In this document: positions 302-33,027 of the stretch, in pieces
How the letters are laid out: every line of letters begins with the position of its first letter
Numbering within the stretch: position 1 is the stretch's first letter
Made by a program: the position numbers and the translations under genes
IMG/VR virus record: IMGVR_UViG_3300037042_005366
Coordinates: 1-33,027 of that record
Source of the DNA: a virus
DNA: 33,027 bases
Strand: one strand, 5' to 3'
The notes under the pieces: generated by a model
Database searches by the model: none
What the model was told of the DNA's origin: nothing
What the model saw: only the letters and a program-made list of their open reading frames with translations

Positions 302-1012
302 ATGGGACTGAACAAAAGTAAAGGAAACATGTACGAATGGGTTACCCACACTTGGAACCCGTTGGCAGGAAAATGTACTCATGCCTGTTCTTATTGTAGC
401 ACAAATAAATTCTATTATCCATCACTCATAGAAAAATATTCCGGGGAACAAAGATTGGTTGAAAAAGAACTTAAAACGAATCTTGGGTCAGGTAATTTTA
501 TATTTGTTTGCGCCCAAAATGATTTATTTAATCTAAGCGTACCTCACGATATAATACAAAAAGTATTAAATTATTGTTCCCAATTCAGAAATGACTATTT
601 ATTTCAAAGTAAAAATCCTTTTAAGTTTATAAATAGTAGTTTATGGTTTCCAAATACAAGCGTTTTTTGTACAACTATTGAAACGAATAGATTCTATGAA
701 AAAATAATGGGCAATACCCCAAGATCAGAAGAAAGGGCTTATTACCTACCGATTGATAGCTACATAACAATTGAACCAATACTTAATTTTGACTTAAAAG
801 ACTTTATTACCTTGTTAAAAGGTGCAAAGCCAAGACAAATTAATGTCGGGGCTGACAGTGGTCATAACAATTTACCAGAACCAAGCAAAGAAAAAATACT
901 TGAATTGATATTTGAACTTGAAAAATTCACGGTAGTTAAGGTTAAAGAGAATTTAAAAAGGCTTATTCAAAACCCTGCAGGCTGTGAAAGCCGTACATTG
1001 ACGAATGTATGA
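302..1012 (+). CDS. DUF5131 (phage Gp37/Gp68-type) radical-SAM-like protein
   Basis: A 236-aa protein with a C25-x3-C29-x2-C32 motif (KCTHACSYC), the arrangement that holds the 4Fe-4S cluster of radical SAM enzymes. The downstream segments (GSGNFIFV, LFQSKNP, TTIETNRFY, YITIEPI, NVGADSG.N.LPEPSKEK) match what I know of the DUF5131 family, once called phage Gp37/Gp68. The family resembles spore photoproduct lyase-like radical SAM proteins, and its substrate is not known. Relatives usually end near 'LKRL'. Here about 14 further residues (QNPAG...) are read through a strongly folded DNA segment (969-1025), so the tail may not be functional. The next gene starts within 40 bases and encodes an ASCH domain, a possible nucleic-acid-modification partner. 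Family assignment is fairly secure; function is open. Confidence 0.8.
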   Translation: MGLNKSKGNMYEWVTHTWNPLAGKCTHACSYCSTNKFYYPSLIEKYSGEQRLVEKELKTNLGSGNFIFVCAQNDLFNLSVPHDIIQKVLNYCSQFRNDYLFQSKNPFKFINSSLWFPNTSVFCTTIETNRFYEKIMGNTPRSEERAYYLPIDSYITIEPILNFDLKDFITLLKGAKPRQINVGADSGHNNLPEPSKEKILELIFELEKFTVVKVKENLKRLIQNPAGCESRTLTNV

Positions 1013-29108: not shown

Positions 29109-29315
29109 TTATTTTAAATTGTTTATGGCAAATCCCTTTTTTTGTTTTACCTTTTCGGGATTAAAATAAATTATCCAATAATTATAATTTTCCTTTTCTT
29201 TTCCCTCTTTTTTCCACCTTGTTATGGTGTTCGGGTCAATACCTATCTTGTTGGCAACAAACACATTTGAGCAGTTTGTGAACGATTCGTTTGTTTTGGT
29301 ATTGATCAGTATCAT
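29109..29315 (-). CDS. Small HTH/NUMOD1-like DNA-binding protein
   Basis: A 68-aa protein. VFVANKIGIDPNTITRWKKEG (about 18-38) fits a helix-turn-helix of the NUMOD1 type ('aa..lgis..tI.r...G'), and the following YWIIYFN closes the unit. NUMOD1 modules usually belong to homing endonucleases; here it stands alone, with no nuclease domain. It overlaps terL by four bases (ATGA), so it is translated with terminase and may bind DNA near the packaging site. The function is an inference. Confidence 0.5.
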   Translation of the reverse strand: MILINTKTNESFTNCSNVFVANKIGIDPNTITRWKKEGKEKENYNYWIIYFNPEKVKQKKGFAINNLK

Positions 29316-30502
29316 CGCTTAATGGTTTGTATTTGCCTTTGAGAATTGGTATAGAGTATGACATACCGCAATGCAGCCAATCCATCCGGTTCATGCCCGT
29401 CCGGTTCTGGTATCACCTTGTCGTTATTGTCAACTTTGAAATAATAAGATTCACAACCATTTTTTATATTTATTGACCTCCTGGTGATAAAGAGGGTATA
29501 TGACCTTACCTTTGAAATCCCATCAATGACCGATCCCGAATACTTTTTTACCCCCCTCACATTATAACCGTACTTCCTTAAATCTTTAATCTCTGTTGCC
29601 CCTGCGCTGTCCGCTATTATTAATTGACCCCTTAAATGGTTAACCTCCTCCAATTTGTCAACTATCGCCATTCTTTCTGCTCCCTTTATTTTTTCTGGCA
29701 TTAAGTTATTCTGGCAAAAAACCTCATCAACGTATAGATTGCTGTCCTTGATCCAACAATCAATTAATACGGTCGGGTCGGGCGAAACACCGAAGTCCAT
29801 CCCTGAACTGATACGCCTTGCATCGTCCGGGATTTTGTCAATAAAATTATAGGAATATATTTGGCGATCCGAATAAAAGCCGATCTGTCCAAGACCGTAT
29901 ATATTGAACCATTGTATATTGTCTTTCCGTGAAAGTATATAATTGACCTCCGATTCTGGACACATCTCGTTATCTAAATAAGTAACAACTATCTGTTCGC
30001 TTATCGAGTTTCCCTTTTCATCTTTCAATTTAGGGATTTCCGTGTGCGCCCAAAATTCACGATCAGGGTTAAAGTCGATATAGACTTCTTCATGCGTCCT
30101 CCCTATATATGTAGAGACTATTCCCCAACCAAATTTGTTGCCTTCATTAAGGTAAAGTATATCCCTGCGCTTTGACTTTCCTGCATTTAATTTTAAATCC
30201 GAAATGTACCTGAATTGGATTATGGAATTGCAAAGCCTTAAATCCTTATCTGTCTTATTATATGAACAATCCCAATTTAAACCAGACGCTTCAAACAAAT
30301 TCTTAAAGTCAGTTATTGCTCCATCTTTTAAATTGTCGTAAGTATCGGTCATTATGGTAATCAACCGCTTTTTTTCTATTGCCTTTTCCATCAAAATTTG
30401 AGCAATGGATACGTTCTTTCCTGCGCCCTGGCCCCCTTGGATAACCTTTATTTTTTTGGTCATCCGTTTGATCTTATAATATGTTGAGGTTCGGTATATC
30501 AA
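29312..30502 (-). CDS. terL: Terminase large subunit
   Basis: A 396-aa DNA-packaging motor. Walker A is GGQGAGKN at residues 23-30; the Walker B region is ILYLNEGNK (about 115-123), where the usual Asp before Glu is Asn, as in the terminase group with 'NEAN'. The C-terminal nuclease shows its three acidic sites: D236 (GMDFG), D298 (IADSA) and D373 (EPDGLAALRY), with E260 near. The first start is kept because it overlaps the small terminase stop by four bases (ATGA); MTKKIKV at residue 14 is another option. The gene order terS, terL, portal is standard. Confidence 0.95.
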   Translation of the reverse strand: MIYRTSTYYKIKRMTKKIKVIQGGQGAGKNVSIAQILMEKAIEKKRLITIMTDTYDNLKDGAITDFKNLFEASGLNWDCSYNKTDKDLRLCNSIIQFRYISDLKLNAGKSKRRDILYLNEGNKFGWGIVSTYIGRTHEEVYIDFNPDREFWAHTEIPKLKDEKGNSISEQIVVTYLDNEMCPESEVNYILSRKDNIQWFNIYGLGQIGFYSDRQIYSYNFIDKIPDDARRISSGMDFGVSPDPTVLIDCWIKDSNLYVDEVFCQNNLMPEKIKGAERMAIVDKLEEVNHLRGQLIIADSAGATEIKDLRKYGYNVRGVKKYSGSVIDGISKVRSYTLFITRRSINIKNGCESYYFKVDNNDKVIPEPDGHEPDGLAALRYVILYTNSQRQIQTIKR

Positions 30503-31981: not shown

Positions 31982-32137
31982 ATGAGAACAGTAATTTACG
32001 TAGGATTATTAGCAATTGCAGACGCTATTAACAAAGATTGGCAACAAGGACAATATATTGCAGTTTACGCCATAATATTCATAGTTGCAATTGTGATGGA
32101 TATAGTTGAATTTATTAATGGGAAAAATTACCGCTAA
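31982..32137 (+). CDS. Small membrane protein, 51 aa
   Basis: ATG at 31982 and TAA at 32135-32137 give 51 residues with one clear membrane helix (about 24-42, YIAVYAIIFIVAIVMDIVEF) and a basic end. The N-terminal part (VIYVGLLAIADAI) is also hydrophobic. It starts four bases after the previous stop, and its stop is 12 bases before the first attC-like element. Function unknown. Confidence 0.55.
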   Translation: MRTVIYVGLLAIADAINKDWQQGQYIAVYAIIFIVAIVMDIVEFINGKNYR

Positions 32138-32149
32138 CTCGTTTATATG

Positions 32150-32277
32150 TATAACGGTTTGTATATGGCAAGTTGGGGATTAAAATGTACCGACCTATCA
32201 ACCTGCTAAAAACTAAATTAAAGGTACAAAAGTAACAAGTTGGAACACGCCCCCAATTTGCTATATACGGTGTTATA
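32150..32277. repeat. attC-like imperfect inverted repeat 1 (128 bp)
   Basis: The left arm (32150-32178, TATAACGGTTTGTATATGGC then AAGTTGGGG) and the right arm (32250-32277, CCCCCAATTTG, then CTATATACGGTGTTATA) pair nearly throughout: TATAAC/GTTATA ends, an unpaired spacer of unequal length (5 v 3 bases), then about 18 pairs with G-T wobbles. Inside, TGTACC (32186-32191) pairs with GGTACA (32223-32228). Outer R boxes, an unpaired central spacer, extrahelical bases and a variable tip are the plan of integron attC sites. The length matches long attC (VCR-like) sites. The box consensus GTTRRRY is only partly met. Confidence 0.55.
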
Positions 32278-32299
32278 GGGCGTTTTAATTCAAATCAAA

Positions 32300-32707
32300 A
32301 TGGAAAAAGAATTAGCAACAAGTAGTTACAACCCGTCAGTGGGTTGTGGATACAACAACAAAAGAGTGTTTATCCAGGATGAAAAAATAATTTTTGAAAG
32401 CATTGGATGGCGGACATTTGATGTTTTTGAGATGCCTAAAAAAAACGCTGAAAAAGCGTGTGAAATAATGATAGAAAATTCTTTCAATATAACAAGTACA
32501 TTTAAAGATGTTTATCATTATTTTGAGGGAGGGTGCTTATGCACAAAAAAACAAACTCTTGAAGAAAGCCGTAACGAATTTACTAAAAACGTGTGGAATG
32601 AGTTACAGTCCATCCTGTGGGACTTTCATCATTATAGAGGGGGAGTTAATTCTCCGCTACAGAAAGAGCTGTCTGCAAGCAGTAGAGTTTATCGCAGCGA
32701 TTACTAA
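32300..32707 (+). CDS. Orphan ORF between two attC-like repeats (cassette gene)
   Basis: A 135-aa protein (MEKELATSSYNPSVGCGYNN...), rich in aromatic and polar residues, with CLC and a Cys pair (GGCLCTKKQ near 78) and a helical middle (NAEKACEIMIENSF). I know no family. It starts 23 bases after the first repeat and its stop is seven bases before the second, as expected for the single gene of an integron cassette. There is no promoter of its own, so it would depend on upstream transcription. Confidence 0.6.
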   Translation: MEKELATSSYNPSVGCGYNNKRVFIQDEKIIFESIGWRTFDVFEMPKKNAEKACEIMIENSFNITSTFKDVYHYFEGGCLCTKKQTLEESRNEFTKNVWNELQSILWDFHHYRGGVNSPLQKELSASSRVYRSDY

Positions 32708-32714
32708 AATGCCC

Positions 32715-32786
32715 TATAACGTTTGGCAGATACACGCTGTGAGCGTTGGATTGAGGGAGGGAAAATAGCGTGTATGTGCTGTTATA
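32715..32786. repeat. attC-like imperfect inverted repeat 2 (72 bp)
   Basis: TATAAC (32715-32720) pairs with GTTATA (32781-32786); an unequal unpaired spacer follows (GTTTG v one base), then GCA/TGC, a G-G mismatch, and ATACACGCT (32730-32738) with AGCGTGTAT (32767-32775). The tip (32739-32766) is unpaired. The plan and the end boxes are the same as in the first repeat, with different arms, which is the usual relation between attC sites of different cassettes. Confidence 0.55.
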
Positions 32787-32821
32787 ACCAGTGCGGATAA
32801 TTAACGATAAAACTAAATAAA

Positions 32822-33019
32822 ATGGCAGGATTAGCAAGAATTTGTAAAATGTATGGCTCAATGGAAATGAGTGATGCAAATGGTAAAAAAGTAACTTGGC
32901 TTTGGGATTATGTAAACGATAAACCAAGACTAAAAACAGAAATGACCAAAGAAGAAATAATGGCAAGTGAAAAAGCCAAGTGGATGGGTGTAAAATCTAA
33001 ATTAGATGCAGAAAAGTAG
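32822..33019 (+). CDS. Small phage protein, MAGLA-type
   Basis: A 65-aa protein, MAGLARICKMYGSMEMSDAN then GKKVTWLWDYVNDKPRLKTE and a charged helix (MTKEEIMASEKAKWM). I recall small proteins of this kind ('MAGLakICk.YGsm...W.WDY..dkprl..EMTkeEi..Sek.KW') from Bacteroidota phages, with unknown role. It starts 35 bases after the second attC-like repeat. If the family recognition is correct, the attC-like elements lie within the phage genome rather than host DNA. Confidence 0.6.
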   Translation: MAGLARICKMYGSMEMSDANGKKVTWLWDYVNDKPRLKTEMTKEEIMASEKAKWMGVKSKLDAEK

Positions 33020-33027
33020 CATTGGTT

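What the first reader, a model, noticed from the sequence alone, without database searches (positions are those of the whole stretch)
32138..32821. An integron-like gene cassette: an orphan ORF enclosed by two attC-like repeats
Seen: two long imperfect inverted repeats with the same TATAAC...GTTATA ends but different arms, each placed within 7-23 bases of the ORF 32300-32707, both with unequal unpaired spacers after the end boxes, wobble-paired inner arms and an open tip. Known: attC recombination sites of integrons have this plan, with extrahelical bases and variable lengths (about 57-141 bp), and cassettes carry one gene ending at attC. Inferred: the phage (or its host neighbour) has taken up a mobile cassette. 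The neighbour at 32822 looks like a phage protein, so this may be a cassette inside a phage genome, which I do not know as an established arrangement. No integrase is in the window.
Basis: partly seen in the sequence, partly recalled or inferred. Interest (0 to 1): 0.8.

Follow-up and report, generated by a model that had tools for sequence, protein, structure and literature searches.

The report
Integron gene cassettes inside a phage
A virus of Bacteroidota-type bacteria carries small swappable gene units that use the same DNA "sockets" as integrons in bacterial chromosomes, but with the genes consistently turned the other way round, which suggests phages keep their own pool of such cassettes.

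Summary
The two hairpins (32150-32277, 32715-32786) belong to an attC family found in viral contigs and in 32 of 148 sampled Bacteroidota genomes, but in 0 of 149 genomes of a control phylum. A model built only from chromosomal sites scores site 1 at E=5e-16 and site 2 at E=0.002. In host chromosomes the sites form arrays of up to about 30 single-gene cassettes beside a tyrosine integrase that lacks the IntI-specific domain.

Decisive test: the boxes at the two ends of each inter-hairpin segment are complementary (72% in phages, 92% in chromosomes), as if each segment had once been a circle. The two boxes of one hairpin match no better than chance. The window's ORF segment matches 10/10 (GTTATAGGGC...GCCCTATAAC). 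Two unrelated phage contigs share one cassette cut exactly at AA^C on both ends.

Unexpected: relative to the site, phage genes are inverted: 80 sense to 3 antisense in phages, 2 to 106 in chromosomes. Phages with integron sites are already published. The Bacteroidota site family, its domain-less integrase and the inverted phage pool were not found in the literature I could search.

The parts
32150..32277 (+). Site 1, attC-like hairpin. Left box TATAAC 32150-32155; arms 32161-32178 and 32251-32268; right box GTTATA 32272-32277. The plus strand is the folded (bottom-type) strand.
   Evidence: R1 74 bits (site was in the training set); R2, chromosomal sites only, 72.4 bits, E=5.4e-16
32715..32786 (+). 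Site 2, attC-like hairpin. Left box TATAAC 32715-32720; arms 32726-32738 and 32767-32779; right box GTTATA 32781-32786.
   Evidence: R1 55.8 bits (site was in the training set); R2 21.2 bits, E=0.0019
32155..32719 (+). Predicted mobile cassette (565 bp) between the two AA^C cut points: hairpin 1, leader, ORF2.
   Evidence: Cut position inferred from duplicated chromosomal cassettes and from a phage cassette shared by two unrelated contigs
32272..32281 (+). Box GTTATAGGGC that opens the ORF2 segment; reverse complement of 32711-32720.
   Evidence: sequence; 7/7 match beyond the core
32711..32720 (+). Box GCCCTATAAC that closes the ORF2 segment.
   Evidence: sequence
32300..32707 (+). ORF2, 135 aa, the cassette gene; orphan.
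   Evidence: no relative in viral contigs, phages, 296 Bacteroidota genomes or Pfam; weak PHROG match only
32822..33019 (+). ORF3, 65 aa, gene of the next cassette. Homologues at 47-94% identity in 12 viral contigs, with attC-like sites on both sides in L079 and L082 and no hairpin in others.
31982..32137 (+). ORF1, 51 aa, last gene before the array; no hairpin seen upstream of it.
29312..30502 (-). Terminase large subunit, phage hallmark of the contig.
   Evidence: Pfam Terminase_3 1.3e-10, PHROG 6.8e-19; 48 viral relatives

Best explanation
The region is the start of an integron-type cassette array in a phage that very probably infects Bacteroidota. Each cassette is a hairpin site followed by a short leader and one small gene. 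Shown by sequence: the sites belong to the attC family of Bacteroidota chromosomal cassette arrays; segments end in boxes that pair with each other across the gene; breakpoints fall at AA^C; and the plus strand is the strand whose hairpin is preserved. Inferred: when the plus strand is single-stranded (replication or transcription), the hairpin folds, a host tyrosine integrase of the XerA/IntI type joins AA^C of one folded site to another site, and the cassette excises or inserts as a circle. The phage carries no such enzyme and would use the host's. Phage cassettes have their gene inverted relative to host cassettes, so they form a separate pool exchanged mainly among phages.
For: Family: 9 viral contigs share the 18-mer, 111 model hits in 62 further viral loci, 32/148 Bacteroidota genomes against 0/149 in the control phylum. 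Independent model R2, without phage sequences: E=5e-16 and 0.002. Cassette closure: segment-end boxes match at >=5 of 6 bases in 72% of 89 phage and 92% of 59 chromosomal segments; one hairpin's own two boxes in 4% and 8%; 0 of 3000 shuffles reach the observed mean. A second chromosomal set gives 84% against 11%. Window segment 10/10. Breakpoints: L138 and L095 share about 280 nt at about 97% identity that begin at AACGGTTTG and end at GTGTATAAC, with unrelated flanks; two chromosomal cassettes are duplicated with the break at the same side of the site. Folded strand: G.T against A.C oppositions on that strand 305:18 in phages and 120:8 in chromosomes, so the pairing is kept on the strand that is antisense in chromosomes, i.e. 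DNA and not mRNA. Stem covariation 0.249 against 0.116 in shuffles. Integrase beside arrays in several genomes. A site of P12002L, a phage with sites of this family, was recombined by IntI1 in published work.
Against: No integrase in the window or in 15 of 18 array-bearing records, and the three that have one were not shown to encode an IntI-like protein. No relative of this very phage with and without the ORF2 cassette was found. ORF3 of L082 keeps the window's leader but has a different hairpin upstream, which a single cut side does not explain. The published active site of P12002L could not be matched to one of my coordinates. Recombination itself was not tested. Which host supplies the enzyme is unknown.
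Confidence: 0.85

Rival explanations
1. A MITE or REP-like inverted repeat family that happens to lie between genes; the TATAAC...GTTATA ends are its terminal repeats.
For: Conserved ends, variable middle, many copies.
Against: In a MITE the two ends of one copy belong together; here they match no better than chance while the ends of the segment between two copies match. Copies abut stop codons at fixed distance; in 30 of 95 phage cases the TAA of TATAAC is the gene's stop. Gene strand relative to the copy is fixed.
Confidence: 0.03
2. An RNA element of phage mRNAs (terminator, processing or translational control hairpin in the leader of each gene).
For: In phages the hairpin-preserving strand is the mRNA-like strand and the hairpin is in the leader.
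Against: The same strand bias exists in chromosomes, where that strand is antisense to the genes. RNA function does not predict complementary boxes at opposite ends of a gene. No Rfam match in the window. A secondary RNA role in phages is not excluded.
Confidence: 0.05
3. A passive fragment of a host chromosomal integron picked up by the phage by illegitimate recombination, with no continuing cassette exchange.
For: Proposed for phage CALINs by Qi et al. 2023; no integrase in the phage; related phages lack the sites.
Against: Phage cassettes have the gene inverted relative to host cassettes (80:3 against 2:106); no phage cassette gene matched a host cassette gene among 144; one phage has about 45 sites; a cassette is shared between two unrelated phage contigs.
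Confidence: 0.07

Closest known systems
CALINs in phage genomes, in particular Polaribacter phage P12002L (Qi et al. 2023, PMC9892861)
   Same: attC sites between small phage genes without an integrase; the R1 model finds sites of this family in P12002L, best 38022-38102, 56 bits. A P12002L site was recombined by IntI1 in that paper.
   Different: That paper tested two attC sites of P12002L, notes divergent directions, and does not define the family. Here the family, its chromosomal relatives, the box test and the inverted gene orientation are added.
Sedentary chromosomal integrons (Vibrio-type superintegrons)
   Same: Long one-gene arrays with similar long sites, integrase at one end, cassettes bounded at the R' box, bottom-strand hairpin. 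The comparison with Vibrio rests on my own knowledge.
   Different: The Bacteroidota integrase lacks the IntI-specific domain and is often co-directional with the cassettes; phage cassettes carry the gene inverted.
XerA / IntI tyrosine recombinases (NF040815, TIGR02249)
   Same: The array-adjacent integrase P0001 passes the NF040815 cut-off (230.5 against 220) and is related to TIGR02249 (211.9 bits).
   Different: It is below the TIGR02249 cut-off (265); 22 residues stand where VchIntIA (2A3V) has 65.

Membership tests
Integron gene cassette | attC site with R boxes, spacers and an imperfect hairpin | tested here: met
Integron gene cassette | Segment boxes complementary, as if from a circular intermediate cut inside the box | tested here: met
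   window 10/10; population test
Integron gene cassette | One gene per cassette | tested here: met
   one ORF in 32155-32719; ORF covers more than half of most segments
Integron gene cassette | Gene oriented towards its own attC (gene then attC) | tested here: not met
   phage genes are inverted relative to the site; the chromosomal arrays of the same family meet it
Integron gene cassette | Recombined by an integron integrase | not testable with these tools
   published for one P12002L site, not for these
Integron gene cassette | Scored as attC by HattCI or IntegronFinder models | not tested
   those models are not available here; own models R1 and R2 used instead
Complete integron | intI and attI next to the array | tested here: not met
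   no tyrosine recombinase in the window; met in Bacteroidota chromosomes for an IntI-like enzyme
IntI (for the chromosomal integrase) | IntI-specific additional domain | tested here: not met
MITE/REP | Ends of each copy match each other | tested here: not met
   own boxes equal chance

The most novel reading that the evidence does not exclude
Bacteroidota carry a widespread integron class driven by XerA-like integrases without the IntI domain, overlooked because standard tools require that domain; and phages of these hosts maintain their own exchange pool of gene cassettes on the same sites, with genes systematically inverted, recombined in trans by the host's integrase.
Probability: 0.6. Interest if true: 0.9.

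Novelty: new variant of a known kind. Interest (0 to 1): 0.8.

Why it matters
Integrons are known mostly from Proteobacteria. IntegronFinder 2.0 reports a single complete one, in Salinibacter, for Bacteroidetes proper. An integrase that handles folded single-strand sites without the IntI-specific domain would challenge what that domain is needed for. A phage-specific cassette pool with inverted genes would give phages a modular system for swapping small accessory genes (in P12002L several adjacent genes are DNA methyltransferases), and the orientation rule makes the direction of exchange between phages and hosts readable from sequence.

Tried and rejected
Single-sequence folding was uninformative for site 1. 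A BLAST of the region against named phages and plasmids gave only chance hits. ORF2 has no relatives and its single-sequence fold is unusable (pLDDT 43). I searched for an empty site in relatives found by terminase: 48 loci, one weak site hit, no shared flank. Linking genes to hairpins by gene homology gave few informative pairs; breakpoints and boxes were decisive instead. My first breakpoint statistics mixed neighbouring sites and were redone. The first box test mis-registered GTTGTT ends and was redone. Integrase genes on two viral contigs (L175, L176) were read but not classified further; L176 lies beside a portal gene and looks like an ordinary phage recombinase. Published attC taxon classifiers have no Bacteroidota model.

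Full report
WHAT IS THERE. The window is a 33-kb linear virus contig with terminase and lysozyme genes. Near its right end two hairpins frame ORF2 (32300-32707). Site 1 runs from TATAAC at 32150 to GTTATA ending at 32277, site 2 from TATAAC at 32715 to GTTATA ending at 32786. Folding energy does not by itself make site 1 unusual.

A FAMILY, AND WHERE IT LIVES. The first 18 bases of site 1 occur in nine other viral contigs, between genes and mostly with a matching right arm. They also occur in Bacteroidota chromosomes. Aligned, the outer parts are conserved (TATAACGGTTTGTATATG...TATATACGTTGTTA), while the inner arms differ and stay complementary. Covariation on this alignment exceeds all shuffles (score 0.249 against 0.116, 0 of 500 reaching it). 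A covariance model of ten sites, R1, finds 32 of 148 Bacteroidota genomes and none of 149 genomes of the control phylum. Among 398 kb of phages related to the window by terminase it finds one weak hit, so the sites are an accessory load and not a feature of this phage group.

THE CHROMOSOMAL ARRAYS. In Aestuariibaculum (G003:C3) about 30 sites lie at 718560-745212, most directly after the stop codon of a gene, all genes in one direction, preceded by a tyrosine integrase at 716423-717553. Two cassettes are present twice; the copies agree up to ...CAAACCGTTG and then part, which places the cut in G^TT of the gene strand, AA^C of the other strand. The Aestuariibaculum integrase passes NCBIfam's XerA/integron-integrase model NF040815 but is below the cut-off of TIGR02249. 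Aligned to VchIntIA (2A3V) it has 22 residues where VchIntIA has 65, the place of the IntI-specific domain. A candidate attI lies between integrase and first cassette. IntegronFinder requires that domain and reports one complete integron, Salinibacter, in Bacteroidetes proper; published taxon models of attC include none for Bacteroidota.

INDEPENDENT TEST OF THE WINDOW. A second model, R2, was built from 28 chromosomal sites only. It scores window site 1 at 72.4 bits (E=5.4e-16) and site 2 at 21.2 bits (E=0.0019); the next match in the window has E=0.085. The evidence for site 2 is weaker than for site 1 and rests more on the box test.

THE CASSETTE TEST. If a segment between two sites was once a circle closed inside the box, the box at its start must pair with the box at its end, while the two boxes of one hairpin come from different cassettes. 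That is what is seen. In phages 72% of 89 segments match at five or six of six bases beyond the core, against 4% of hairpins with themselves; in chromosomes 92% of 59 against 8%; no shuffle of 3000 reached either mean. In a further set of chromosomes the figures are 84% and 11%. The window's ORF2 segment starts GTTATAGGGC and ends GCCCTATAAC, ten of ten. The ORF3 segment starts GTTATAACCA, and the contig ends ...TTGGTT, which fits ATAAC as the next bases. A terminal-repeat transposon or an RNA hairpin predicts none of this.

A CASSETTE CAUGHT IN TWO PHAGES. L138 and L095 share a unit at about 97% identity that begins at AACGGTTTG and ends at GTGTATAAC; on both sides the sequences are unrelated. 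Its start and end boxes are complementary over nine bases. So the phage cassette is hairpin, then leader, then gene, cut on the same side of the hairpin as in chromosomes.

THE INVERSION. Relative to the hairpin, genes in phage segments run in the opposite sense to those of chromosomal cassettes: longest ORF 80 sense, 3 antisense, 6 ties in phages; 1 to 58 in chromosomes; 1 to 48 in a second chromosomal set. Flanking-gene counts agree (159:15 and 3:130), and in P12002L the orientation can be read from annotated methyltransferases. In both groups the strand I call R1 keeps its hairpin through G.T pairs and not A.C mismatches (305:18 and 120:8). In chromosomes this strand is antisense to the genes, so pairing is kept for single-stranded DNA, as in the classical attC bottom strand (established knowledge of integrons). 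Phages have the same DNA element with the gene turned round. No phage cassette gene matched a chromosomal one among 144, a small sample. Why the inversion was selected is open. My guess: in phages the folding strand is the coding strand, which is exposed by transcription and, for genes co-directional with the fork, is the lagging-strand template, so folding and recombination would be favoured.

EXTENT IN PHAGES. One 71-kb phage contig (G165) has about 45 sites in three clusters, nearly all in one direction, and no tyrosine recombinase. The window, an 87-kb contig that shares ORF3, and P12002L also have none. ORF3 occurs with attC-like sites in some phages and as a plain gene without any in others, as expected of genes drawn into cassettes.

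WHAT REMAINS UNCERTAIN. Recombination was not shown here. The published work shows that one P12002L site is used by IntI1, and P12002L has sites matching R1 and R2, but I could not identify which site it was. ORF3 in L082 has the window's leader with a different hairpin; a cut at the other box or gene conversion may also occur. The literature searched is the open part of PubMed Central only, so the claim of novelty is limited to it.

VERDICT. Membership in the integron cassette family is met except for gene orientation, which is inverted, and for an integrase in cis, which is absent. It works like an integron cassette; it is best described as a phage variant of one.

Noticed in passing
L062-L064 (G003:C3:716423-745671); L250-L255: Chromosomal integron-like arrays in Bacteroidota with an integrase lacking the IntI-specific domain, up to about 30 cassettes; about a fifth of sampled genomes carry sites of the family.
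   Followed up: partly
L179, L180, L182 (G165, 71 kb): A large phage contig with about 45 attC-like sites in three clusters of very small genes.
   Followed up: partly
L010:780-920, L073: A cassette ORF that appears to start inside the hairpin loop and to read through the right arm, so that the site would encode a protein N-terminus.
   Followed up: no
L081:530-750: In place of the hairpin upstream of the ORF3 homologue there is a tRNA-like stretch that seems interrupted (gcggaattggcagacgct ... ggttcgaatccaac).
   Followed up: no
window 33020-33027: The window contig ends just before the predicted next cut point, possibly because assembly breaks at variable cassette junctions.
   Followed up: no
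L130 / L175 (G170:C1:16052-16531): A 294-aa tyrosine recombinase beside a phage-type array on a 26-kb viral contig; could be a phage-borne enzyme for these sites or an ordinary phage integrase.
   Followed up: no
window 302-1012: A gene matching DUF5131 and more weakly radical SAM (PHROG 2045).
   Followed up: no
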